IMG/VR virus record: IMGVR_UViG_3300027509_000028
Coordinates: 1-34,042 of that record
Strand: one strand, 5' to 3'
Source of the DNA: a virus
DNA: 34,042 nt
The notes beneath the pieces were generated by a model. That model was given only the letters and a program-made list of their open reading frames with translations, was not told the DNA's origin and made no database searches. Numbering within the stretch: the first letter of the stretch is position 1; the number at the start of each line of letters is the position of its first letter. Both the position numbers and the translations under genes were made by a program. This document shows, one piece after another, positions 2,772 to 32,404 of the stretch.

Positions 2772-3268
2772 CCTGGATCATTTACTTGCCATGTATTAAT
2801 ACCTACAGATCTATTAGTACCTGCTCTTCTTGCAGTATTTCTTATTTGCTCTTCTTGTCTATTACGTATCATATTATGAAGAACATTTATATCCTCATTT
2901 TCATTTACAATTTCTGGTTCTCCATTTAATATTTTATTTTCAGCTACTAATTCTTCATTTTTTTTTGCATCAGCAATGGCGTTTTTCCATCTTGCATATG
3001 TGGTTCTAGGCACCTCTACAACGCTTCTTAATTCATTAGTACTATCAATTTCATTTACTCTTTCATCTATTGTAGTAAGAGCTACTTCAACTAATCTTCT
3101 CTCCGCTTTTGAAGAATCTTTATCTTGGTATATTCTATTAAGGATCTTTCTCCTTATTAATAATAAATTAGATAATATAAGTACATCAGTACGAGTAGTA
3201 TTAGAAAAGTCTATTATATGAAACTTGTATAAATCTTTCAGTTCATTTGTGTTTAAAATAATGTTCAT
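2768..3268 (-). CDS. hypothetical protein with helical, charged C-terminal half
   Basis: 166 aa. Residues 1-60 are mixed; from about residue 60 the chain is a long charged helix (RRLVEVALTTIDERVNEID...) and the end is Arg/Asn-rich and polar. No signal peptide. A structural or scaffold-type role would fit the helix content but I do not recognise the family. It overlaps the next gene start by 4 nt. Confidence 0.65.
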   Translation of the reverse strand: MNIILNTNELKDLYKFHIIDFSNTTRTDVLILSNLLLIRRKILNRIYQDKDSSKAERRLVEVALTTIDERVNEIDSTNELRSVVEVPRTTYARWKNAIADAKKNEELVAENKILNGEPEIVNENEDINVLHNMIRNRQEEQIRNTARRAGTNRSVGINTWQVNDPG

Positions 3269-3792
3269 ATTATATTAAAAATTTTTAAAAGTATGGCAAA
3301 TACAATACCTGAACCCCCTATACCGAGAGTAGTTGTCTTAAATTTTTTTAATTGTCTATTTTCTTCTAAAATAGTAGGTATAGTTGTTAAAGTCTCTGTA
3401 CAGTTAGCAAATAAATCCATACTATATTTATAGTTTTCTCTATTATCTGCAACTAAACTAGCGTTTGTATTTGTTAAAGTATTATTATTACCTAATAATA
3501 AATTAAAGTTAAAATTATCTAAAGAGTCTTTAGCTATCTTAACATTTAATCTATCATTTAAAATATCTATTGTTTTTAAATCTCTAGCCCATAATTGTGC
3601 ATGTTCTTTTTTTAAGATATAAAATGTAGCGTCTTTTTTATTATATATCAAAGGAAAATAAGAATCTGATATTTTATCTAAGTTCATCAAATCTGACTCC
3701 ATCTTCAATTCTGTCTGAGATAATAGAAGAAAGGGTATCATCAGAAAAAATAAGTTCAGGTATATTAGACTGAATAGCTTTAAGTTCTTCAT
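3265..3792 (-). CDS. exported protein with C-terminal membrane anchor; spanin-like topology
   Basis: 175 aa. Residues 1-26 are an uncleaved or type I signal (MKNLKLFSLIYLNLFFLMIPF...LLSQ), residues 27-145 are extracytoplasmic and polar with Asn-rich helices, and residues 155-173 are a second hydrophobic anchor (LGIGGSGIVFAILLKIF). A protein fixed at both ends across the periplasm is the plan of unimolecular spanins. Its first 119 nt lie out of frame inside the gene 3674-4036, as in overlapping Rz/Rz1 pairs. If translation instead starts at Met31 (3702) the signal would be lost, so the longer start is preferred. The spanin role is inference from topology and position near a cell-wall domain gene at 5497-5985. 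Confidence 0.6.
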   Translation of the reverse strand: MKNLKLFSLIYLNLFFLMIPFLLLSQTELKMESDLMNLDKISDSYFPLIYNKKDATFYILKKEHAQLWARDLKTIDILNDRLNVKIAKDSLDNFNFNLLLGNNNTLTNTNASLVADNRENYKYSMDLFANCTETLTTIPTILEENRQLKKFKTTTLGIGGSGIVFAILLKIFNII

Positions 3793-4036
3793 CTGTTTGA
3801 TTAAGTTTATTTAATTTCTTATTAATAGATACTAACTGTTCAGTTAGTTTATTTTCTTTCTCAGGTATACTATCTTTGACGTTAATAAGTCTCATCAACT
3901 CATTATTTTCTTTTTTTAAAATCTCATAATTACTTTCAAGTTCTTTTGTTTTTTTTATATTTTTATTCCAGCCTATACCTAAAAGAATTAATATTAAAGT
4001 TATAGCTAAAATTATAAATATTTGTAATCTTTCCAT
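3674..4036 (-). CDS. membrane-anchored coiled-coil protein; possible inner-membrane spanin (Rz-like)
   Basis: 120 aa. One N-terminal transmembrane segment (residues 6-23, IFIILAITLILILLGIGW) is followed by a basic boundary (NKNIKKTK) and a long heptad-like helix (ELESNYEILKKENNELMRL... TEQLVSINKKLNKLNQ). This N-in/C-periplasm layout with coiled coil is that of Rz-type i-spanins. The C-terminal 40 codons overlap the next gene in another reading frame. Family assignment is by architecture only; phage tail or anchor proteins could look the same. Confidence 0.6.
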   Translation of the reverse strand: MERLQIFIILAITLILILLGIGWNKNIKKTKELESNYEILKKENNELMRLINVKDSIPEKENKLTEQLVSINKKLNKLNQTDEELKAIQSNIPELIFSDDTLSSIISDRIEDGVRFDELR

Positions 4037-4329
4037 TATTTATTTTTTTTAATTTCTAAATTTAATTCATTACATCTCAATATAATAAATTTTCTTAAAT
4101 CATAAATATAACCTTTACCTCCTGTATAATCTAACACCTTTTCTATATCATAGCTAAGTACTCTTTTAAAATGATTAAAGTATTTTATATTTAAATCTCC
4201 TAAAGAACTATCTACTGATGCTTCTCTAATAGTAGCTACTATTTTTTTTTTATTAAAATCTAGTCTAGATAAATTAGCGCCAAGTGTTGTTAATCTGTTT
4301 CTTAATGTTAATAATTCAGTATTTGTCAT
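4036..4329 (-). CDS. hypothetical helical protein
   Basis: 97 aa, soluble and basic, with a leading helix (TELLTLRNRLTTLGANLSRL) and a GGKGYIYDLRKFI segment near residues 69-81. It shares one base with the following gene's start and 4 nt with the preceding stop. Function unknown; its fixed place between the cell-wall gene block and the possible spanin suggests a role in the same late module. Confidence 0.65.
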   Translation of the reverse strand: MTNTELLTLRNRLTTLGANLSRLDFNKKKIVATIREASVDSSLGDLNIKYFNHFKRVLSYDIEKVLDYTGGKGYIYDLRKFIILRCNELNLEIKKNK

Positions 4330-5513
4330 GTTATAACTTTAAATTCTTTACTATCATATACTTCCCATAAACTTAAATTAGTTATAGGTTTCTCTTTCTT
4401 AAAATTAACTACTCTTTTATCATATAAATATCTTATAGCAGCCTCATCAATTTTACCTAATTTACCTTTTGATATTAGTTTACCTTTTTCTATTTTAAAA
4501 AAGTATCTAATACCTTTCATAAATTCATGCTTTTTCTTTAGATTATATAAATTAAATATAGCAAATCTATTTATAGTACCTTGACTTATCATTTTATCTA
4601 CTGAACCAGATAAATATACTGATCTTCGTCTATTATACTCTTTTGGTGTTATATTTAATTTAGCGCAAATAGCTTTTACTAAATTTAAATCTTTAATCAT
4701 TCTGATTTCAGCATTTAAAGATGGCTTTTTAGGAAATTTAATTTTAGTTCCTTTTTTCATATTTACATATAGTTTTACTGACCCTGAAACATTTAAATTT
4801 TGTCCATTAAGTTTAAACCATTTACAATGTGCAGGTATCCAAAATTTATCTTTATTAGGATCTCCAGTTATCTTATAGTTTTTACCGCCTATAAGTACTT
4901 TAGTTCTTTTTCTATCAATAGTATATTTAGGTAACCATTTATAAGCTTTACTTTTATTTAAAAAATAAGAGTAATTAGCTATGTTTCCACACATAACAGA
5001 TGCTATATGTTTATTCCAAGTAGTTACATATAAGCTAACAGTAGTACCATTTTTATATTGAACTTCTTTATTAAATAGAACTAATTTCCAACTACTGAAG
5101 TTAGCAAAATTTCTTGTTTTATGTGATTGCTTAATGTAATCAGGTCTACTTTCACAATAATATTTATATACTGCTAATCCTGCTATAAAGTTACCATGTC
5201 CTAATGGTCTATACTTATCTCCTGCTTTTAAATCATGTTCATGTTGTCTAGGTACAGTGAATGTATAAAATAGATTTCTATAAAAAAGTATTTTTAACTC
5301 AGAATTATATTCTTTAGGTAATTTTTTATTAATATAATTAACACAGAACCTAATTTTAGATACCATTCTATCTATCTTACCATAATCATCCATTTCAGTA
5401 AGTTCTTTAATAACTTTATTTAATAAAGTTATATCTAAATGCTCTCTATCTATATAAGGTATTTTTTTATTTATATTAACTATTTTATAATTATGATCAT
5501 TCACTGTATACAT
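4326..5513 (-). CDS. large basic hypothetical protein
   Basis: 395 aa, soluble, Lys/Tyr/Asn-rich, with no signal peptide. A segment around residues 105-125 (RPLGHGNFIAGLAVYKYYCE) and a run of predicted strands in the middle are the most conserved-looking parts; no catalytic signature is evident. The C-terminal 120 residues are helical and very basic, which would suit nucleic-acid or wall binding. It overlaps the 3D-domain gene by 17 nt. I do not recognise the family, and call it only as a real gene by length and coupling. Confidence 0.7.
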   Translation of the reverse strand: MYTVNDHNYKIVNINKKIPYIDREHLDITLLNKVIKELTEMDDYGKIDRMVSKIRFCVNYINKKLPKEYNSELKILFYRNLFYTFTVPRQHEHDLKAGDKYRPLGHGNFIAGLAVYKYYCESRPDYIKQSHKTRNFANFSSWKLVLFNKEVQYKNGTTVSLYVTTWNKHIASVMCGNIANYSYFLNKSKAYKWLPKYTIDRKRTKVLIGGKNYKITGDPNKDKFWIPAHCKWFKLNGQNLNVSGSVKLYVNMKKGTKIKFPKKPSLNAEIRMIKDLNLVKAICAKLNITPKEYNRRRSVYLSGSVDKMISQGTINRFAIFNLYNLKKKHEFMKGIRYFFKIEKGKLISKGKLGKIDEAAIRYLYDKRVVNFKKEKPITNLSLWEVYDSKEFKVIT

Positions 5514-7932: not shown

Positions 7933-8010
7933 TAAACTAAGAGGGATTTGAACCCACGATACTGTATCTGAATGAAGAAACAGGAACTTACCCGTTGTTC
8001 TATTTAGTTC
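7933..8010 (-). tRNA. tRNA-like gene with expanded anticodon loop
   Basis: On the minus strand GAACTAA (8010-8004) pairs with TTAGTTT as a 7-bp acceptor stem. GAAC/GTTC forms the D stem around AACGGGTAA with the G-G pair, and GTGGG-TTCAAAT-CCCTC is a canonical T arm with one U-U mismatch. One extra base sits between acceptor and D stem. The anticodon stem TGTTT/ATACA has a T-T mismatch and leaves a 10-nt loop, CTTCATTCAG, instead of 7. I therefore cannot assign the anticodon (TCA, TTC and CAT can all be read). It may be a decayed tRNA, an unusual suppressor or a tRNA-like RNA. Confidence 0.6.
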
Positions 8011-12979: not shown

Positions 12980-13486
12980 ATGAAATTAAAAAGAAATTGT
13001 AAACAATGTGATGAAGAGTTTTTAGCTGATACCAGAGAATTAAATAGAGGTAATGCTAAATTTTGTTCTATATCTTGTGGGGTACAACATAGTAATTTAC
13101 ATAGAAAGTTACATAATAAAGTATGTAAACATTGTAGTAATAGATTTGAATCAATTAATATAACTGCTAAATATTGTTCCAATTTCTGTAAACAAAAGAA
13201 CTATAGATTAAGAGCTAAGTCTGATAATAAACATGATGCTAAATTAAAAAAACTAATAAGACAATATCCATGTGAAAATTGTAATTATTCTACTACTCAT
13301 AGAGATGTACATCATGTTATACATGTAAAAGACGGCGGTAAAAATGAATATTCTAATTTAATATCTTTATGTCCCAATTGTCATAGAGAAGCACATTGTG
13401 ATATATTATCTAAAGAAACTTTATTTAATATAATTAAAAATAGAATATTATCATTGTCTTTAAAAGAATTATTAAAAGAAATATAA
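12980..13486 (+). CDS. free-standing HNH homing endonuclease with zinc fingers
   Basis: 168 aa. Two N-terminal CxxC...CxxxC fingers (Cys7/10/29/33 and Cys49/52/66/70) are followed by an HNH nuclease domain: CENC (98-101), the HH pair (111-112), Asn126 and CPNCHREAH (131-139). HNH enzymes nick or cut DNA with one metal ion; in phages such free-standing genes spread by homing. It is alone on the plus strand between minus-strand genes, with its own promoter and terminator, as expected of an inserted mobile gene. A zinc-finger pair before the HNH domain is typical for DNA-site recognition. Confidence 0.85.
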   Translation: MKLKRNCKQCDEEFLADTRELNRGNAKFCSISCGVQHSNLHRKLHNKVCKHCSNRFESINITAKYCSNFCKQKNYRLRAKSDNKHDAKLKKLIRQYPCENCNYSTTHRDVHHVIHVKDGGKNEYSNLISLCPNCHREAHCDILSKETLFNIIKNRILSLSLKELLKEI

Positions 13487-15702: not shown

Positions 15703-16152
15703 TTAAATTCTTTGATAATAATCTTCAGGCATTATTGTATTATGTGATATATAAGTTAATTCCCAAAGATTTTCATCTATATTGTTAAATATTCCTATTT
15801 TATTAGAATGATAATAAAGATCTTTAGTCCACTCATCATTTAATGGATCACTATAAATAACAAAAGGTGTTTCTATTATAACTTTATTATTTTGATCAAA
15901 TGATCTTATTATTCTATCTACTGATAAAGAATAAGTTTCTTCTGTGTATCCAATATTATACTCAGTTAAATGCTCATCATTCTCCATTTTAATGTATACT
16001 TGATTAGTATAATCATTATAAAATATAGTATTACATGTATTTGTACTTATAGGTACATAATTATCTTGAAAGTCAAGTTTAATTTGTTGTTCAGGTATAA
16101 TAGATATTAATGATCCTATTATAAAAAATATAAATGGTATTTTATGTTTCAT
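15703..16152 (-). CDS. exported hypothetical protein
   Basis: 149 aa. Residues 1-21 (MKHKIPFIFFIIGSLISIIPE) are a signal peptide or N-terminal anchor; the rest is polar, Asn/Tyr-rich and beta-like. Function unknown. Its ATG overlaps the upstream stop by 4 nt. Confidence 0.65.
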   Translation of the reverse strand: MKHKIPFIFFIIGSLISIIPEQQIKLDFQDNYVPISTNTCNTIFYNDYTNQVYIKMENDEHLTEYNIGYTEETYSLSVDRIIRSFDQNNKVIIETPFVIYSDPLNDEWTKDLYYHSNKIGIFNNIDENLWELTYISHNTIMPEDYYQRI

Positions 16153-16424
16153 AATTTTTGGTTTTTTATTAAATCTAAATTATTTTTTATCCATTTTGCA
16201 AAATCATGAAAATCATTTTGAATTAGTTCTGCATTTAATAAATCAGCAGTATTTATTCCTTTATATCTATTATTCCATTTAAAATAGTTTTTTTCTTTAC
16301 TTTTTAAATAAGATATCATTATTTTATTAAATTTTCTTTTTGATAAAATAATATTAGGTAATAATTTTCGTATATAAACATGAATACCATTTAAATAATT
16401 TACTTTTCTTTGTAATCTGCTCAT
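16149..16424 (-). CDS. basic helical hypothetical protein
   Basis: 91 aa, strongly basic N-terminal half (RLQRKVNYLNG, SKRKFNKIMISYLKSKEKN) and a helical end (FAKWIKNNLDLIKNQKL). DNA or RNA binding would suit the charge; no motif confirms it. It lies downstream of the terminator at 16449-16482. Confidence 0.6.
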   Translation of the reverse strand: MSRLQRKVNYLNGIHVYIRKLLPNIILSKRKFNKIMISYLKSKEKNYFKWNNRYKGINTADLLNAELIQNDFHDFAKWIKNNLDLIKNQKL

Positions 16425-16448
16425 ATTTTAAAGTTTTAGTTTAAAAAG

Positions 16449-16482
16449 TGAAGAGTATATGCTATATTGTATACACTCTTCA
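16449..16482 (-). terminator. intrinsic terminator facing left
   Basis: TGAAGAGT (16449-16456) and ACTCTTCA (16475-16482) form an 8-bp stem, followed on the minus strand by CTTTTTAA. The nearest gene upstream on that strand ends 816 nt away, at 17298, so the terminated transcript either has a very long 3' end or is the structured non-coding segment itself. Confidence 0.65.
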
Positions 16483-16610
16483 TATGTTATCATTATCTAC
16501 GGATAGCAATAATAATTCCATTAATTAGTTTGAAGATGAATAAATCTGTTACGTGAATAATCATAATAATACTAATTTAGTTACTCTTTAGTTTTTGGGA
16601 AACTAAAAAA

Positions 16611-17125
16611 TATACAGCTAATTCCTCTGTATAACCACTCATACTATTAATATGATTAATCTGGTGATATTGCACAATTAAATAATAGCAGGATTTGCAA
16701 CCTTAACGCCTACAGACTACCCTTTCAAGGGCTTTAAACTATTATTTATACTTAAGTAGCTATTAACTATAATAATTTGAGGACATCACTCACCATTATT
16801 ACTATTACTTAAGGCAAATGAGCCATTACAATCGGACTCTCTAGAAGGATTTAAACCTTTTACCATTTGCTGCCTCCACTAAAAGATATAAATTCACCTG
16901 AATAAGACAACTATTATTACAACAGTTTATATCAGCTGATGCCCGTTGAATAGGGATTCATTTACATCTTAATAGCTTTACATTGTTATCCCTTAACAAA
17001 AGATAAGGAATACTTTGTTGGCTTAGATATCTAATTTGCCTGATATCTAAGCTTGACACTATGTTGGCCCTACAGACAGTTTTATTATACCTAACTGACA
17101 AATATCAACACTTTTTTCGTTTTAT
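16611..17125. ncRNA. large candidate structured RNA
   Basis: About 515 nt with no credible gene and consecutive perfect stems: TATACAG/CTGTATA (16611/16627), AAATAATAG/CTATTATTT (16680/16739) enclosing a CCCT-TTCA-AGGG hairpin, GCAAATG/CATTTGC (16814/16864) around AAGG-ATTTAAA-CCTT, GATATAAA/TTTATATC (16885/16926), an 11-bp hairpin GCTTAGATATC/GATATCTAAGC (17021/17042), and nested TGTTG/CAACA plus CAGTT/AACTG followed on the plus strand by CTTTTTTCGTTTTATTT (17110-17126). The T-run favours a plus-strand RNA ending there; the terminator at 16449-16482 would fit a minus-strand one. Confidence 0.5.
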
Positions 17126-17223
17126 TTCTACAATATGTTCTGATAAAAAAGAAATGAGTGTATAACTAAAAAACAACACCAACTATACTCTAGGCATAAG
17201 AGTATTGTATTTTAAGTGGTATT

Positions 17224-17252
17224 GGCAGAGAGCATCATCACTACTCTCTGCC
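17224..17252. other. strong isolated hairpin
   Basis: GGCAGAGAG and CTCTCTGCC pair perfectly over 9 bp with an 11-nt loop; no T-run follows on either strand. Just right of it, TATACCC-TTAAGA-GGGTATA (17271-17290) is another hairpin before the stop of 17298-17651. Possibly terminator, 3'-end protection or part of the large RNA. Confidence 0.5.
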
Positions 17253-17297
17253 GTTCATCAACCACAAACTATACCCTTAAGAGGGTATAAAATATCT

Positions 17298-17651
17298 TTA
17301 TTTCTTTTTTAGATACCTAGCTTTAGGATATCCAGTTTTAGCATTAATGATGAAATACCAATATTTACTTTTATCTTTATTAGTCCATACATATCTAGTA
17401 TTATGTTTTTCTTTAGTTCTTATACCAAGATATGCCTTGTATTGTTTACCAGATTTATTAGATGTTCTCATGATGTAAATAGATCCTGATCTAGATTGTC
17501 CTCCTTTAAATGTTTTACCAGATATTGTTACATTTCCAGTTTCATTTATAGTTGATGTAACTATTTCAACAAACCTTGATGTTTCTTGAGCTGATACATT
17601 TAATGATATCATAGTAACTATAGCTATGATTAATGTTTTGATAGTATTCAT
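17298..17651 (-). CDS. secreted hypothetical protein with cleavable signal peptide
   Basis: 117 aa. MNTIKTLIIAIVTMISLNVSA is a textbook type I signal with cleavage after VSA before QE, the usual Bacteroidota form. The mature 95 residues are basic, Ser/Thr/Lys/Tyr-rich and beta-like (VTISGKTFKGGQSRSGSIYIM). No family recognised. Export to the periplasm suggests a role at the host envelope. Confidence 0.7.
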   Translation of the reverse strand: MNTIKTLIIAIVTMISLNVSAQETSRFVEIVTSTINETGNVTISGKTFKGGQSRSGSIYIMRTSNKSGKQYKAYLGIRTKEKHNTRYVWTNKDKSKYWYFIINAKTGYPKARYLKKK

Positions 17652-17669
17652 TTTAATTGTTTTAAATGT

Positions 17670-17792
17670 TTATAATATGTAATCACCAACATTATGGTAA
17701 TATTTTAATATATCTTCATTGTCATTAGGTTTAGGAAATTGATTTTTCCCTTCAATAGTTAAACTATTCCACCATTTAATTGCTTCTTTCAT
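17670..17792 (-). CDS. 40-aa hypothetical protein
   Basis: ATG 17792, stop 17670-17672. MKEAIKWWNSLTIEGKNQFPKPNDNE... has the WWN-L pattern seen in small proteins of Bacteroidota phages. It starts 1 nt before the stop of the neighbouring 45-aa gene and lies 18 nt before the secreted-protein gene. Confidence 0.55.
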   Translation of the reverse strand: MKEAIKWWNSLTIEGKNQFPKPNDNEDILKYYHNVGDYIL

Positions 17793-17930
17793 TTAATAAT
17801 TATTAACTTTTGCTCCTAAACAAGATATGTCAATAAAACTATTTTTTATAAGTTTACCATATTGCTTATAAACAGCATCATATGATTTATTAAGTAATTG
17901 ACATACTTTATGTACATGTATTTTTTCCAT
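17793..17930 (-). CDS. 45-aa hypothetical protein
   Basis: ATG 17930, stop 17793-17795, directly abutting the next gene. The sequence begins MEKIHVHKVCQLLNKSYDAV and may contain a helix-turn-helix-sized pair of helices. Too short for a family call. Confidence 0.5.
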   Translation of the reverse strand: MEKIHVHKVCQLLNKSYDAVYKQYGKLIKNSFIDISCLGAKVNNY

Positions 17931-17958
17931 GATTTAATTGTTTAATGGTTAATAATAA

Positions 17959-18005
17959 AAGAGAATGCAGGATATACTGCCATTTAATTTACATAAAGTT
18001 CTCTT
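17959..18005 (-). terminator. probable intrinsic terminator with inner hairpin
   Basis: AAGAGAA (17959) and TTCTCTT (17999) close a stem containing GCAG-GATATA-CTGC; on the minus strand TTTTATTATT follows. It would end transcripts from the 18274-18432 gene or the non-coding segments. Confidence 0.55.
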
Positions 18006-18043
18006 AGCTTTACATGTCTTGAGTTTCACGTGTTTTTTAAAAT

Positions 18044-18105
18044 AATACAAGTGAATATACATTACGTGTATACTGTGTACTGTTATTTTCAGCTATCCTT
18101 GTATT
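18044..18105. other. inverted-repeat module
   Basis: AATACAAG (18044-18051) pairs with CTTGTATT (18098-18105); TATAC...GTATA forms an inner hairpin. Just right, ATTAAT...ATTAAT around 18115-18136 is another. No reading frame of note in 17931-18273. Confidence 0.4.
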
Positions 18106-18161
18106 AAATGCATATTAATTACTCTCCAGTATTAATTGCTTTCACATGAGTATTTTAAAAT

Positions 18162-18251
18162 AACTCTCACAAGGTTGCACCTTGATTAATTACACCAAAT
18201 TAATACTACAAGATTTCTTGTTATGTTTATACCTGCAATTGGATGAGAGTT
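18162..18251 (-). ncRNA. cloverleaf-like, tRNA-sized RNA candidate
   Basis: Read on the minus strand: AACTCTCA (18251) closes with TGAGAGTT (18169). Inside are ACAAG-AAAT-CTTGT (18221-18208), ATTAAT-TTGGTGTA-ATTAAT (18204-18185) and CAAGG-TGCAA-CCTTG (18184-18170), the last adjoining the 3' closing strand directly, as a T arm does. Length is 90 nt, like a class II tRNA. The loops lack TTCRA and a 7-nt anticodon loop, so it is not a normal tRNA. Confidence 0.5.
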
Positions 18252-18273
18252 ACTACTTCAATATTGTTCTTCT

Positions 18274-18432
18274 TTAATTTACCTTTTGCATTTTTAATGT
18301 AACAAAACATTTACCTTTGTTGATAGATGGTTTATTAGATATTAATGTATATCCTTTTTTCTTCCAATGTTTTAACCATCTGAAGTGTTTATTATAAAGT
18401 AATGTTTTTTCTATTTTAGTTGTATTGCTCAT
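18274..18432 (-). CDS. 52-aa basic protein
   Basis: ATG 18432, stop 18274-18276. MSNTTKIEKTLLYNKHFRWL... is strongly basic (KHWKKKGYTLI, KPSINKGKC). Isolated between two structured non-coding segments. Possibly RNA or DNA binding from charge alone. Confidence 0.5.
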   Translation of the reverse strand: MSNTTKIEKTLLYNKHFRWLKHWKKKGYTLISNKPSINKGKCFVTLKMQKVN

Positions 18433-18532
18433 GATTGATGATTTAGTGGTGATTTAATAAAATAATCAATTGTTGTACTCAAACTTTAGTGCTGGACTGA
18501 CTACCTACTTCTGGTGTACATTTATGATATAA

Positions 18533-18690
18533 AAATAGTAACTTAGATTACACATGTATAAAGCCATAGTACGTAAATTATCATAATTAAAAGGAGTAAT
18601 GAACTCTCAATTTAACAAACTGATAACTAACTGTATTTTTCAATACGTCTACTCAGCATTATAGTATCATGTGTAATCATATTGCTATTT
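18533..18690. ncRNA. candidate structured RNA, about 160 nt
   Basis: GATTACACATG (18546) pairs perfectly with CATGTGTAATC (18668) over 11 bp, extended across an internal loop by AAATAG (18533) with CTATTT (18685). Inside are GAGT-AATGA-ACTC (about 18593-18606), GTATT-TTTC-AATAC (about 18632-18645) and AATTAT-C-ATAATT. No gene is present in 18433-19082. Confidence 0.55.
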
Positions 18691-18827
18691 ATTTTGTATT
18701 TCTTAACGGTTTTAAAAAGGGATAAAAGTACAACTAACGCTATACTAGTATATATCAATTGGATTGCTTAGAAGTGATAAAAAGAGGGTTAAAAGGGAAT
18801 GAGATAGTGCACTCCACCCCACAACAA

Positions 18828-19004
18828 CACTTACATTCAAAATAAAATTAGGACTAATCAGGATTTACTACAATACCTTTGTACTATAGTAGATTTAGTG
18901 TGGTGTTTCAACTACCAATCAATATTTAAATATAATACCCTATTGAATTATCAATAAATAATAAATTAATTAATAAACTGATTAGTCCTTATCTTGAATG
19001 AGTG
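18828..19004. ncRNA. candidate structured RNA, about 175 nt
   Basis: A 12-bp perfect stem AGGACTAATCAG (18850) with CTGATTAGTCCT (18978) is continued outward by CATTCAA/TTGAATG (18834/18994) and CACT/AGTG (18828/19001). The interior contains TCAATA...TATTGA and an ACTAC...GTAGT-like imperfect hairpin. Beyond it lie CACAT-G-ATGTG (19015-19025) and GAGC-TTAC-GCTC (19064-19075). Confidence 0.55.
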
Positions 19005-19082
19005 CTGATAGTACACATGATGTGCATACTACCAGCTCACTGTATGTTAGATGGCAATGAAGAGAGCTTACGCTCCCGGATA

Positions 19083-19265
19083 CTATCCCTCCATGCTACG
19101 CAATGCAGCTTGAGGAACTTGTATCACTTGATCTACTTCGTAAGCATCAGCATCCTTGGTAGACATAACTAATGCGTTATACACAAACTCAGATTCTACG
19201 GACACGGTCAACCATGTCTTACCTGTTTTAGAAGTAGAGATTTTAATAATTTTACATGATAACAT
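19083..19265 (-). CDS. small hypothetical protein
   Basis: 60 aa: MLSCKIIKISTSKTGKTWLTV..., a probable OB-like strand set with an acidic middle and QVPQAALRSMEG end. Less AT-rich than neighbours. Function unknown; single-strand or tail-associated binding cannot be judged. Stop at 19083 lies close to the GAGC-TTAC-GCTC hairpin. Confidence 0.6.
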   Translation of the reverse strand: MLSCKIIKISTSKTGKTWLTVSVESEFVYNALVMSTKDADAYEVDQVIQVPQAALRSMEG

Positions 19266-22276: not shown

Positions 22277-22554
22277 ATTATTAAAGCTTCTTTTAGACCT
22301 TTATCAAGGGCTTCTTCATAAGTATCCCAATAACCAGTATTCCACATTCTTGAGTGTTTGGTTATAATTCTATTTATCATCTTCTTTTCTGTACTTTCAG
22401 GATCTTCATAAATTATGTCATATGTATAACAAAAACTATTAGAATCTTCTCCTTCATAATTAATTATTACATTGATATAATCTTTATCTCTTAAGTTTTT
22501 TTGTAATTCAAATTTAGTTATCAATTCCTTATCCATTTCCAGAGTTTTTTTCAA
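22255..22554 (-). CDS. small protein with 'YEEALDKGLKEALI' C-terminus
   Basis: 99 aa. The C-terminal WDTYEEALDKGLKEALIIKKK is the same helix as in 309-719 and 20209-20628, so it is a shorter member of that family. The N-terminal half is different and acidic. It overlaps the end of the nuclease gene upstream by 26 nt. See the note on the A11 run after its end. Confidence 0.65.
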   Translation of the reverse strand: MKKTLEMDKELITKFELQKNLRDKDYINVIINYEGEDSNSFCYTYDIIYEDPESTEKKMINRIITKHSRMWNTGYWDTYEEALDKGLKEALIIKKKIKN

Positions 22555-24364
22555 AGTGAAGTAAATCCTCTACTTCTTCAAAAAGGTAGTCATATTCATA
22601 ATCTGTCTCCAAACCATCCTCAGGATCTGGGATATGGGTAAACTTGAGGTTTCTAATAGTGAAGCCAAATTCAGAAAGCATCCATGCATACAGACTTCCT
22701 TGAAGGCGGTAGTGGTTATAGTTGCAGTCATCTAGCGTATCTAATGGAAACTCCATAGATTGGAAGTCATTAAATTTTTTAATCTTTTTATTTGTATTAT
22801 GTGTTTTAATATAATTTTTACTAAATAAATAAGTTTTTTCTTCTCCTTCTACAGCTAAACATTTTGTAGGAACTGTTTTAACTTTTTCTATATTTTTAAT
22901 ATATCTAGATTTAGAATATTTATTATTTTTAGTATTTATTAAATCATTATAGTCTTTATTTCTACATAAAAATGGATTTATATCAGGTGTAAAATTTACA
23001 CTATATCCTTTAAATTGTTTTCCAAACCCAGTTCCATTATAATTAATAGTTGTAGGTTTTAAACCTAATGAAGATACTATATTAGAAACGTCTTTTGCTT
23101 GTAGCTTACTTGTAGTTTGCATTACACATCTTTTTCTATTTCTATTAAAATAACCATCTCCATCCATATAACCTCTCAATAAATCTAATCTTTGTTTATA
23201 TGATGCGGTTAAATATAAATCTGGAACATGTTTATTATTTAAAACATTTAATTTTATAAGATGTTTTCTTATATTATATATAGTTCTTGATTCAGCTTTA
23301 TCATTATATTGATTATGATTATGAGAAGTAGAATAACCTCTATTATGTATTTCTTTCCATATATCATCATTTATACAAGTAATAGTTCCACATGTTCTAT
23401 TACCATCAGCAAGCCAAAGTCCTAAAACATAAGGATCTATTGGGAGCTTTTTATTAGAAAATTCAGGGTAAGCACAATTTATAGCTAATGTATTGCCTTT
23501 AAAGTTGAATAACTCTTCAGTAGTTAATTCTATCTCTTTTTTTTCTTTTTTACCACTTTCATATACTACCCATTTATGTTCATGATCAGCTACTATACTA
23601 TCATTAGTATCAAAAGTTATTTTATAACAGGGATTATAATGAACATCAGATACATGTTTAACTTTAGTAATTTTACCATTTCCATTAAATATGTTATCTC
23701 CTACTATTATATTTTCTATTTTTTTAAATCCTATATCAGTTGGAATTAAAGTTCCTAATTCTAAACCCTTATAATCATCAATGTCAATGAATCTAACGTC
23801 TTCTACAGTTTCAATCCATACTTTGTCGGCAGTACCTGCTAGCTTATATGGATCATTCCATATAAGCAACTCTGGATAATACCCGTCTTTCAACTCATAC
23901 AAATTATTAACAAGAGATTGATTCTGACTAGTAACTTCTACACTCTTTTGAATTACCTTTACTTCTTTATTAGTAAAAGGATTTATTTGGGTCTTCTTAC
24001 TATAAGATAGCGCTTCTTGTGAATCGTGGTACTTATTACCTTTCTTAATAGCTTTTTTATTTATGCCTTTCCATTTTCCTGTAATCTCATTCATCTTTTC
24101 TAACACATCTGACATCTCACCCCCTAGTTCTTTTGTATATGCATGAGCACATGCGGCTATTAGGTTATGATCATATGGAGGTGAAAAGCATGATTTAACT
24201 TCAGAAAAAGTATCAGGCATTAGTTCTTCATATGCTTTATAAGCAGACCAGAACTTTGGATTAAATTTAATCTTATACTTACTTATTAGTTTTGTAACAG
24301 AAGTGTATATAACATCTCCTTTATTGTAAGTATGACTTTTTTGAGAAAACTCTATTTTTTTCAT
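22529..24364 (-). CDS. PD-(D/E)XK nuclease interrupted by an intein
   Basis: 611 aa from ATG 24364; an in-frame ATG at 24391 adds nine AT-leader residues. The host protein is a RecB/Cas4-like exonuclease: LAGTADKVWIE (175-185) carries the first Asp and DIDDYK (194-199) is the D-x-K core, continued after the intein by TNKKIKKFNDF. A helix with YRLQGSLYAWMLSEFGF follows, as in phage exonucleases where Q-xxx-Y aligns DNA. Residues 200-523 are the intein. Excision would give about 287 aa. Such nucleases act in DNA processing or recombination, and inteins often sit at their catalytic centres. It is the first gene left of the strand switch. Confidence 0.85.
   Translation of the reverse strand: MKKIEFSQKSHTYNKGDVIYTSVTKLISKYKIKFNPKFWSAYKAYEELMPDTFSEVKSCFSPPYDHNLIAACAHAYTKELGGEMSDVLEKMNEITGKWKGINKKAIKKGNKYHDSQEALSYSKKTQINPFTNKEVKVIQKSVEVTSQNQSLVNNLYELKDGYYPELLIWNDPYKLAGTADKVWIETVEDVRFIDIDDYKGLELGTLIPTDIGFKKIENIIVGDNIFNGNGKITKVKHVSDVHYNPCYKITFDTNDSIVADHEHKWVVYESGKKEKKEIELTTEELFNFKGNTLAINCAYPEFSNKKLPIDPYVLGLWLADGNRTCGTITCINDDIWKEIHNRGYSTSHNHNQYNDKAESRTIYNIRKHLIKLNVLNNKHVPDLYLTASYKQRLDLLRGYMDGDGYFNRNRKRCVMQTTSKLQAKDVSNIVSSLGLKPTTINYNGTGFGKQFKGYSVNFTPDINPFLCRNKDYNDLINTKNNKYSKSRYIKNIEKVKTVPTKCLAVEGEEKTYLFSKNYIKTHNTNKKIKKFNDFQSMEFPLDTLDDCNYNHYRLQGSLYAWMLSEFGFTIRNLKFTHIPDPEDGLETDYEYDYLFEEVEDLLHFEKNSGNG
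22796..23767 (-). mobile_element. intein with LAGLIDADG homing endonuclease
   Basis: 324 aa. The N-terminal splicing block is GLELGTLIPT...GFKKIENIIVGDNIF, the middle contains two LAGLIDADG motifs, LGLWLADG (host residues 314-321) and LLRGYMDGDG (395-404), and the C-terminus is YLFSKNYIKTHN followed by Thr as the +1 residue. Position 1 is Gly rather than Cys or Ser, which suggests a non-class-1 splicing route. It is inserted between the catalytic Lys and the following Thr. Confidence 0.85.
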
Positions 24365-24428
24365 GTATATAATATAATAAATTATACACATTTATTTACT
24401 TAAAAGTATAAGAAATTTATACAAGTCC

Positions 24429-29902: not shown

Positions 29903-30072
29903 CAGAATTTAGTTTAGAACCACATGATATAATTCATGGATTTAAAATAGGACCAGAGTATAGAATACTAGTAGATGAAGACCAAATTAAACAAGGTTGG
30001 TTTTTCAGCTTTGGATTTTTCTTATTTACTTTAAATATAGTAAAATTTTATATCACAGATATAGATGAGTAA
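29899..30072 (+). CDS. 57-aa membrane-like peptide
   Basis: ATG 29899 overlaps the upstream TGA; stop 30070-30072 overlaps the TerL start. MTEFSLEPHDIIHGFKIGPE... with GWFFSFGFFLFTLNIVKFYI (35-54) as a hydrophobic span near the end. Small membrane protein between TerS-like and TerL genes; function unknown. Confidence 0.55.
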   Translation: MTEFSLEPHDIIHGFKIGPEYRILVDEDQIKQGWFFSFGFFLFTLNIVKFYITDIDE

Positions 30073-32404
30073 ACTTTTAGAAGGACCAGTTAGGTTATTT
30101 CCACAGTTGTATGACATAAGTGGATTTGTAATAGGTGAACATCCCAAATATCACCCCCTTTCTCTTGACTATGAGACGTACTGGACTTCTATGGAAAGAA
30201 GATGCTTAGAAGGTACTTGGGAAGAAGATAGAGACGGTGAATTAGGAGGTTGGCGTTATATGCCCGGCTTCCTTTTTTATTATGCTAATATATGTAAAAT
30301 TATTGATGAGTCAGATGATGGTGGTACAACAGTAGATAATCCTTTACTCAGAGATGTAGAATGGGTATTGTCTTATGCTTGGATGACAGCTAGAGGTTTT
30401 TCAGGTTTTGAACATGACAATGAATTTACTTGCAATAGATTAGTCTTGAAACAAGAGGAAGGTAAAGAACTGACCCCTAAAGAACAAATATCTCTAAATA
30501 AAGATAAGTATACTCTTAAGAAAGATGGTAGTCCAAAGAAGTATGTAGAAGCAAGAGAGTACTTATATAGAACTCATAATGATAACATGGGTAAAGCATT
30601 GTACAATAACTTTGCTTTAAATCTTATGATATTAGGAGCAAGGGGATTTGGTAAATCTTTCTTTGCTGCAAATGCTATTATAGGACATGAGTTTAATTTT
30701 TATGGTAAGAAGTATTATAATGAAACTTACTTAGATAACCCATCCCCAGTAGAAATCTTTGTAGGAGCGGCTCTTGCTTCTAAGTCTACTGATTTATTAA
30801 AGAAATTTACACTCTCACAAGAATATATAAAGAAAGAAGTAGGAGCATATGGATCAGGAGAAGAATTTATACCAGGATTTTTTCATAACAATACTACAGG
30901 ATCTTTAAGACCTAACTCTTCTTATGAACACAAATATGCTTCTAAAGTAGGTGGAACATGGGTAGAAGAAGGTACAGGAACTAAGATTGCTCATGGTGTA
31001 TATACTACAGAGAATCCACAAGCAGCTGTAGGAACAAGACCTACAGTAATGGCAATTGAGGAGGTAGGACTAGTAGGTAATTTATTATCTGTACATGGTG
31101 CTAATGAAACATGTATGATTAGAACCACTAAGTTTGGATCAGCTGTGTATTTTGGTACAGCAGGTAACATGGAAAAGATAACAGAACCCAAGATCATATT
31201 TGAAGATCCTGAAGCTTATAACATGGTACCTTTTAAAGACTCATGGGAAAACAGAACTAAGCCCATAGGTTTATTTATGCCTGCTTATTATGTAGATAAC
31301 TCATTTAAAGATAAGAATGGTAATACTAATTTACAGCTTGCTTTTGAACAAGAAATAATAGAAAGAACTAAAAGACAAAAAGCTAAGAACTCTGCAGCAT
31401 TAGATGAGTATATGATGGCACGTCCTCTTATACCTTCAGAGATGTTTTTAACTGCATCTGGTAATTTCTTCCCTGTAGCTAAGCTTAGAGAAAGATTAAT
31501 TGAAGTAGAAGTATCTAATATATTTGAAAAGTTCTCTTCTGTAGGAATGCTTCATTTTCACAATGATAGAAAAATAGTAAGATGGGAAGAAGATGTAACT
31601 AGAAAAAAGTATGTACCTATTACAGGTATGAACCTAGATGCTTACAAGTCTAACATGTTTGGGGCTATAGTTATTTATGAACACCCTACAGACAGTATGC
31701 CTGAAGCTACTTATGATAGGGCTTTATATAAAATAACATATGATCCAGTAAAAGATGATAATGGTGGTACTTCTTTAGCTTCTATATTAGTATATAAATC
31801 TTATGTAGATAAAACATGGGAATCTGAAGAAGAGACATTACAACATGACTTAGTTGCTGAATTTATAGGAAGACCAGATAGAGTAGAAGATATACATGAT
31901 ATAGCTATTAAATTGGCTTTATATTTTAATGCTAAGGTTATGGTAGAGAATAACTTACCTGACTTTATTAGATATTGTAGTTTAAAAAAGTGTAGGCATA
32001 TATTACAACCTACTCCTTGGTTAGCCATATCTAAAGTAATAGCTAACCCAACAAAAAAATACCAAGTAGGAGTTTCTATGAATCAGCAATTAAATGTTCA
32101 ATGTGAACAACTGATAAGAAACCTTCTTTTGGAAGACTGGATAAAAGGAGAGGAGGAGTTTAATAATAAATACTTTTTACATAAGCTAAAGTCACCTAGA
32201 TTACTCAAAGAGTTAATAGAATATGATAGAGAAAGAAACTTTGACCACGTATCTAGTTTAAAATTATTAGCATTATGGTTGTCTCAAGAAATAGAGCAGC
32301 CTATAACACAAGCTAAAAAAACAGATAGATACAAAGATATTGAAACCTTTTACAATAAACATATAAAAGGAACACAAAAAGAAAATCCATATTATGCCTA
32401 TTAA
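30065..32404 (+). CDS. terL: terminase large subunit (crAss-like phage TerL)
   Basis: 779 aa. The motor that pumps DNA into the prohead. The ATPase half has Walker A LMILGARGFGKSFF (187-200, P-loop GARGFGKS), Walker B VMAIEE (328-333) and the coupling motif FGTAGNM (363-369). The nuclease half shows the RNase H-like acidic centre: ITYDPVKDDNGGTS with Asp560, and VMVENN with Glu628. A 180-residue N-terminal extension with YETYW and WRYMPGFLFYYAN precedes the motor, as in crAss-like terminases. It overlaps the start of the portal gene by 11 nt and the small membrane-peptide gene by 8 nt, so stoichiometry may be set by coupling. Confidence 0.92.
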   Translation: MSKLLEGPVRLFPQLYDISGFVIGEHPKYHPLSLDYETYWTSMERRCLEGTWEEDRDGELGGWRYMPGFLFYYANICKIIDESDDGGTTVDNPLLRDVEWVLSYAWMTARGFSGFEHDNEFTCNRLVLKQEEGKELTPKEQISLNKDKYTLKKDGSPKKYVEAREYLYRTHNDNMGKALYNNFALNLMILGARGFGKSFFAANAIIGHEFNFYGKKYYNETYLDNPSPVEIFVGAALASKSTDLLKKFTLSQEYIKKEVGAYGSGEEFIPGFFHNNTTGSLRPNSSYEHKYASKVGGTWVEEGTGTKIAHGVYTTENPQAAVGTRPTVMAIEEVGLVGNLLSVHGANETCMIRTTKFGSAVYFGTAGNMEKITEPKIIFEDPEAYNMVPFKDSWENRTKPIGLFMPAYYVDNSFKDKNGNTNLQLAFEQEIIERTKRQKAKNSAALDEYMMARPLIPSEMFLTASGNFFPVAKLRERLIEVEVSNIFEKFSSVGMLHFHNDRKIVRWEEDVTRKKYVPITGMNLDAYKSNMFGAIVIYEHPTDSMPEATYDRALYKITYDPVKDDNGGTSLASILVYKSYVDKTWESEEETLQHDLVAEFIGRPDRVEDIHDIAIKLALYFNAKVMVENNLPDFIRYCSLKKCRHILQPTPWLAISKVIANPTKKYQVGVSMNQQLNVQCEQLIRNLLLEDWIKGEEEFNNKYFLHKLKSPRLLKELIEYDRERNFDHVSSLKLLALWLSQEIEQPITQAKKTDRYKDIETFYNKHIKGTQKENPYYAY

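What the first reader, a model, noticed from the sequence alone, without database searches (positions are those of the whole stretch)
16611..17125. About 0.5 kb of non-coding sequence packed with nested stems: candidate large phage RNA
In a genome with almost no gaps, 16425-17297 has no gene but has at least eight perfect helices of 5-11 bp (AAATAATAG/CTATTATTT, GCAAATG/CATTTGC, GATATAAA/TTTATATC, GCTTAGATATC/GATATCTAAGC and others), several nested. A T-run follows the last helix at 17110-17126. This resembles the scale of the large ornate RNAs GOLLD and ROOL known from phages, but I cannot align it to either. Orientation is undecided: the terminator at 16449-16482 would end a minus-strand RNA.
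Basis: partly seen in the sequence, partly recalled or inferred. Interest (0 to 1): 0.82.

Follow-up and report, generated by a model that had tools for sequence, protein, structure and literature searches.

The report
Non-coding RNA island in crAss-like phage
The flagged gene-less stretch of a crAss-like phage is probably one of several structured RNAs clustered there; it matches no known RNA, but a small RNA 1 kb away belongs to a family, absent from the RNA database Rfam, that turns up in many related phages at the same kind of place.

Summary
The window is part of a crAss-like phage (terminase about 40% identical to Cellulophaga phage phi14:2). Block 16425-17297 is gene-less under codes 11, 4 and 15. 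Averaged over both strands it is the most locally folded block of that size in the window, but its whole-length fold is not exceptional and energy does not settle the strand. It matches nothing in Rfam 15 (GOLLD and ROOL included), phage or plasmid records, or the relatives I fetched.

It lies in a 2.7 kb gene-poor island. Two better-supported RNAs sit beside it on the minus strand: (1) 18161-18252, a ~90-110 nt RNA with closing stem, hairpin and loop pairing, present in at least 20 other phage contigs and always upstream of and opposite to the terminase gene (17 of 17 testable); (2) 18460-19075, the most strongly, strand-specifically folded place in the window (z about -6). Relatives carry, in the same kind of place, tmRNAs and a ~400-460 nt RNA family with compensatory pair changes. 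The small and large families are not in Rfam. The flagged block is not a detectable member of the large family.

Verdict: probably a minus-strand structured RNA of ~0.7 kb, not GOLLD/ROOL; homology and function unproven.

The parts
16425..17297 (.). the reported gene-less block, between a 91-aa ORF (16149-16424) and a 117-aa ORF (17298-17651)
   Evidence: local structure excess
16443..17160 (-). proposed RNA (about 0.7 kb): from after the 117-aa gene's hairpins to the terminator
   Evidence: 20 helices with pair probability above 0.6 on the minus strand against 16 on plus; boundaries are inferred
16443..16482 (-). terminator-like hairpin TGAAGAGTGTAT...ATATACTCTTCA (16449-16482) followed by TTTTT
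   Evidence: read from the sequence, helix p 0.62 or more; missed, probably because its loop is over 8 nt
16665..17107 (-). long-range closing helix 17107-17089 / 16683-16665 with three G-U pairs that exist only on the minus strand
   Evidence: p 0.66-0.67; no covariation test possible
17021..17052 (.). 11-bp perfect hairpin GCTTAGATATC/GATATCTAAGC
16814..16873 (.). GCAAATG/CATTTGC stem enclosing the hairpin AAGG-TTTAAAT-CCTT and a second small hairpin
   Evidence: by eye; the minus-strand ensemble prefers other partners
18161..18252 (-). member of a small RNA family: closing stem ACUCUCA/UGAGAGU, hairpin CAAGG-UGCAA-CCUUG, loop UGCAA complementary to upstream UUGCA
18460..19075 (-). most strongly folded, strand-specific stretch of the window; 12-bp stem 18850-18861/18978-18989 closes one domain
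   Evidence: z -5.7 minus, -2.4 plus; -6.9 for 18541-19055 minus
17298..17651 (-). 117-aa gene with a signal-peptide-like start, similar to the product of phi14:2 g001; directly upstream of the block on the minus strand
   Evidence: tblastx E 2e-5 to phi14:2 48-254
30065..32404 (+). terminase large subunit (Crassvirales), the reference point for gene order
   Evidence: phrog_6681 E 7e-91; 38-41% identity to phi14:2

Best explanation
The block is most likely a structured non-coding RNA of about 0.7 kb, transcribed on the minus strand with the early-side genes and ended by the hairpin at 16449-16482. It is one unit of a non-coding RNA island that crAss-like phages keep upstream of, and on the strand opposite to, the terminase gene. 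Proposed mechanism: the island is transcribed early, by the injected phage polymerase as reported for early genes of phi14:2, and the RNAs act as folded RNAs and not as messages. For this block, an RNA-only or RNA-protein scaffold acting during host takeover is the working guess. Shown here: gene-less, locally structured, island context, a conserved small RNA 1 kb upstream, structured RNAs in relatives. Inferred: transcription, strand, boundaries, function.
For: No coding potential and no protein-level relative. Structure excess over shuffles and over the rest of the phage. Minus-strand terminator. A small RNA of a conserved family lies 1.0 kb upstream on the same strand; in all 17 records with both features it is on the strand opposite the terminase and upstream of it, 3.3-24.8 kb away (Fpv20). 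Relatives have structured RNA at the equivalent place: tmRNA in phi14:2 and Fpv20 and a large family in phi14:2, G005, L065, L067, L069, L077 and G039. One of its helices shows five of seven pairs with changes on both sides. The gene just upstream of the block is similar to phi14:2 g001, in the same region.
Against: No homologue of the block itself in any collection searched. The model of the large family does not hit it above noise. The whole-length minus-strand fold is ordinary for this phage. Structure is about equal on both strands, which does not favour an RNA over a DNA element. No transcript data.
Confidence: 0.52

Rival explanations
1. The block is not one RNA but a string of separate small elements: end-of-gene hairpins of the 117-aa gene (17170-17290), a few independent hairpins and short RNAs, and the leader and terminator at 16449-16482.
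For: The strongest local z (-5.8, 17175-17424 minus) comes from the hairpins after the 117-aa gene. Most probable helices are short and local. G025, G031 and G036 carry two or three copies of the small RNA in one island, so small separate units are normal there.
Against: A long-range helix 17107-17089/16683-16665 with G-U pairs is predicted with p 0.66-0.67. In relatives one unit of 400-460 nt occupies this kind of place.
Confidence: 0.27
2. A DNA-level element: replication origin, or hairpin promoters for the injected phage polymerase, whose inverted repeats act as DNA.
For: Structure is similar on both strands (plus -2.51, minus -2.28), as perfect inverted repeats give. The review PMC10136315 describes the Crassvirales transcription programme as broadly like that of coliphage N4, whose polymerase is known to use hairpin promoters (own knowledge).
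Against: No iterons: only three weak two-copy direct repeats in 16400-19100. No GC-skew switch here; it is near 24 kb. The neighbouring RNA at 18460-19075 is strand-specific.
Confidence: 0.12
3. A decayed gene or mobile-element remnant (homing endonuclease, group I intron).
For: Homing endonucleases lie in or next to the relatives' RNAs (GIY-YIG after the G005 RNA; HNH-like frames in L069 and L077, read by eye), and the window has an HNH gene at 12980-13486.
Against: No tblastx similarity to any fetched locus, no Rfam intron match at E<=5, structure above background.
Confidence: 0.06

Closest known systems
GOLLD RNA (RF02032)
   Same: Large phage-encoded structured RNA, by size and setting in phages (PMC12286853)
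   Different: No covariance-model match; no tRNA island beside the block, and in the whole window only a doubtful tRNA-like call at 7933-8010
ROOL RNA (RF03087)
   Same: 0.5-0.6 kb phage and prophage RNA with many helices (PMC12286853)
   Different: No match (control silent); no tRNA island beside the block
Large RNA of phi14:2 / IMGVR 3300009508_000001 (G005) / L065 / L067 / L069 / L077 / G039 (found here, not in Rfam)
   Same: Gene-less 400-460 nt unit on the strand opposite the terminase where both can be placed, in the same island as the small RNA in six of these phages (not phi14:2)
   Different: None of its motifs (AGGTTAAACATTGAAACCTTTG, TTCTCAGCAAGTAGTT, GTGACCC...GGGTGCTAATAAA) occurs in the block; model R2 gives only noise there
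Phage tmRNA (phi14:2 4031-4502; Fpv20 84536-84950)
   Same: Structured RNA of about 415-470 nt in the same kind of island
   Different: No tmRNA by ARAGORN or Rfam in the window

Membership tests
GOLLD (RF02032) | match to the covariance model | tested here: not met
GOLLD (RF02032) | often near tRNA islands | tested here: not met
   ARAGORN gives only one doubtful tRNA-like call, 7933-8010
ROOL (RF03087) | match to the covariance model | tested here: inconclusive
   no match, but the 14 control genomes were silent too
GOLLD / ROOL | forms an RNA-only multimeric cage | not testable with these tools
   needs cryo-EM; PMC12286853 describes it for the known members
Large RNA family of crAss-like relatives (models fam.hmm and R2) | conserved motifs and 3' domain stem | tested here: not met
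   fam.hmm no hit in the window at E<=10; R2 best 7.6 bits on plus and 5.3 on minus within the block, against 52.8 bits for phi4:1, left out of the model
Large RNA family of crAss-like relatives | position: opposite strand to the terminase, in the island of the small RNA | tested here: met
   position alone is not homology
Small RNA family (model R1), for 18161-18252 minus | closing stem, 3' hairpin, loop pairing UUGCA/UGCAA | tested here: met
   83.6 bits minus (the window copy is in the model); sequence similarity found also by pattern and BLAST
tmRNA (RF00023) | tRNA-like ends with tag frame | tested here: not met

The most novel reading that the evidence does not exclude
Crassvirales phages carry an RNA island opposite the terminase made of several RNA classes unknown to Rfam: a widespread small RNA with a loop pairing, at least one 400-460 nt RNA family, and lineage-specific large RNAs such as the flagged block and 18460-19075, which together serve early infection.
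Probability: 0.45. Interest if true: 0.8.

Novelty: new variant of a known kind. Interest (0 to 1): 0.58.

Why it matters
crAss-like phages are among the most abundant viruses of the human gut, and the two crAss-phage papers I searched for it do not use the words non-coding, intergenic or tmRNA. A recurring RNA island with RNA families absent from Rfam would give this group an unstudied layer of early infection, testable in cultured relatives (phi14:2, Fpv20).

Tried and rejected
GOLLD, ROOL, tmRNA and any Rfam family: no match. Recoded frames (codes 4 and 15): only short frames. Close relatives by neighbour proteins and terminase: none in IMG/VR. 17-mer from the block: one hit, inside a coding frame of an unrelated phage, chance. 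Pattern AAGGTTGAAATTCCAAG: only phi14:2 and G005 real, the other 16 look like coding sequence. ParB-like gene as anchor: nothing. Blast of the block against about 40 viral records: only short matches of 11-53 nt. Membership in the large RNA family through motif, HMM and covariance model: no. TROVE/Ro60 with Y RNA as a setting, prompted by crAss001 early genes: no TROVE protein in 22 records. Fold energy as a test of the conserved large RNAs: z +0.96 to -1.43, so a low energy z is neither needed nor sufficient. Sigma-70 and Bacteroidota promoter patterns: not above chance. Host genomes: the small RNA pattern occurs in one of 84,980 species genomes, on a 4.5-kb contig of a MAG labelled archaeon, probably a misbinned phage.

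Full report
What the window is. It is a 34 kb record of a virus. The terminase large subunit at 30065-32404 and the portal protein after it match Crassvirales families (phrog_6681 E 7e-91, phrog_6547 E 1e-58). The terminase is 38-41% identical to Cellulophaga phage phi14:2; no closer relative was found in IMG/VR. Genes left of about 24.4 kb run mostly on the minus strand, genes right of it on the plus strand, which by analogy with phi14:2 puts the reported block among the early-side genes.

The observation. Block 16425-17297 holds no gene by ORF length, alternative codes, stop density or protein similarity. Perfect stems of 7 bp or more are about twice as many as in dinucleotide shuffles (25 against 13.3 +/- 3.8). 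The mean z of 250-nt windows over both strands is -2.39, lower than in any of 125 other blocks of this phage. At the scale of the whole reported stretch the energy is not special: -1.93 on minus and -3.26 on plus, against a genome background of -1.45 +/- 1.53. Energy z is a weak test here: the conserved large RNAs of the relatives, described below, have z between +0.96 and -1.43. The T-run at 17110-17126 does not sit behind a helix. The minus-strand hairpin 16449-16482 with T5 does look like a terminator.

What surrounds it. The gene-poor tract runs to 19083. Its other half contains the strongest fold of the window, 18460-19075 on the minus strand (z -5.7 against -2.4 on plus; -6.9 for 18541-19055), with agreeing minimum-energy and centroid structures. 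Between the two lies a small RNA at 18161-18252 minus. I first noticed its resemblance to a stretch in a relative by eye. A gapped pattern then found 36 places in IMG/VR, of which about 20 distinct phages besides the window carry the same RNA; most of the others are chance or near-duplicates. The consensus is ACUCUCAUCCAAUUGCAGGU, a variable stretch of roughly 40-90 bases, then CAAGGUGCAACCUUGUGAGAGUU. On 24 copies the closing stem is paired in 97% of cells, the hairpin in 100%, the loop pairing UUGCA/UGCAA in 73-78%; nine pairs have a change on both sides against 1.2 in shuffles. Two cautions: the search pattern itself fixed the closing stem, and the stem's double changes come from one sequence, apparently Fpv20, which was found without that pattern, where the stem is one pair shorter and the MAFFT alignment is shifted. 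The RNA has no Rfam match at gathering cut-off in seven loci that carry it. In every record where both could be placed (16, plus Fpv20) it lies on the strand opposite the terminase and upstream of it, 3.3 to 24.8 kb away. In 84,980 prokaryote genomes the pattern occurs once, so it is a phage RNA.

What relatives have there. phi14:2 has an unannotated tmRNA at 4031-4502 and Fpv20 one at record position 84536-84950 inside a 2.3 kb gene-less tract. phi14:2 (2905-3365) and IMG/VR contigs G005, L065, L067, L069, L077 and G039 share a second, larger RNA of 400-460 nt, with two tandem copies of its 3' domain in G039; phi4:1 and phi17:2 carry its 3' hairpin. One helix of its 3' domain has five of seven pairs with changes on both sides, covariation score 0.80 against 0.34 in shuffles, and sliding the partner destroys it; the 3' terminal stem pairs in all six sequences despite changes. 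Only five to seven sequences are involved, so this is good but not final evidence. Homing endonuclease genes lie in or next to these RNAs in several phages (G005 GIY-YIG; L069 and L077 HNH-like, by eye).

Is the flagged block one of these? Not detectably. It has none of the large family's motifs, the profile and covariance models give only noise, and all-against-all comparison of 143 gene-less segments gives it no partner. What it shares is position: 1.0 kb downstream of the small RNA on the same strand, as in L065 (0.9 kb), and directly downstream of a gene similar to phi14:2 g001. Position is a reason to expect an RNA there, not proof of homology.

Most likely working. Early transcription of the minus strand would produce the RNA and stop at 16443. 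A minus-strand-only long-range helix (17107-17089 with 16683-16665, three G-U pairs, p 0.66-0.67) would close a multi-branched domain of about 440 nt. That early genes of phi14:2 are transcribed by the injected polymerase is reported in the review PMC10136315. Function is untested; the scaffold idea is a guess by analogy with GOLLD and ROOL.

Verdict. The block is a plausible, unproven large RNA; the island and the two families absent from Rfam are the stronger finding.

Noticed in passing
window 18161-18252 (minus); L053, L056-L058, L065-L069, L073, L076, L077, L079-L081, L083, L086-L090, L026: Small RNA family of crAss-like phages with a loop pairing, not in Rfam 15; up to three copies per island (G025).
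   Followed up: yes
L025 2905-3365, L026 11820-12240, L065 8531-8934, L067 10522-10909, L069 11027-11226, L077 5238-5568, L095/L096: 400-460 nt RNA family of crAss-like phages with compensatory pair changes; homing endonucleases in or beside it.
   Followed up: partly
L025 3373-3535 and L026 12299-12450: A further conserved element after the large RNA: AAGGTTGAAATTCCAAGAGATTAA ... TTAATCTCTAAAATCTACTACATAATACAA with a terminator-like hairpin; only in phi14:2 and G005.
   Followed up: partly
L025 4031-4502; L090 4537-4951: tmRNA genes in phi14:2 (not annotated in the RefSeq record; tag GSSVQKLAMVA) and Fpv20.
   Followed up: no
L031 214-290: Pistol ribozyme (56.6 bits) close to a tRNA cluster in a crAss-like phage contig.
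   Followed up: no
window 22529-24391 (minus): Exonuclease-like protein interrupted by a LAGLIDADG, intein-like insert of about 320 aa.
   Followed up: no
window 7933-8010 (minus): tRNA-like gene with a four-base anticodon call (catt), possibly degenerate or a frameshift suppressor.
   Followed up: no
L025 1279-1983 and L026 14133-14447: Another shared gene-less element (CTGTATCAGCAGTTGTGTTTATTC) in phi14:2 and G005.
   Followed up: no
L089: The only genome-collection hit of the small RNA is a 4.5 kb contig in a MAG labelled archaeon, probably a misbinned phage.
   Followed up: no
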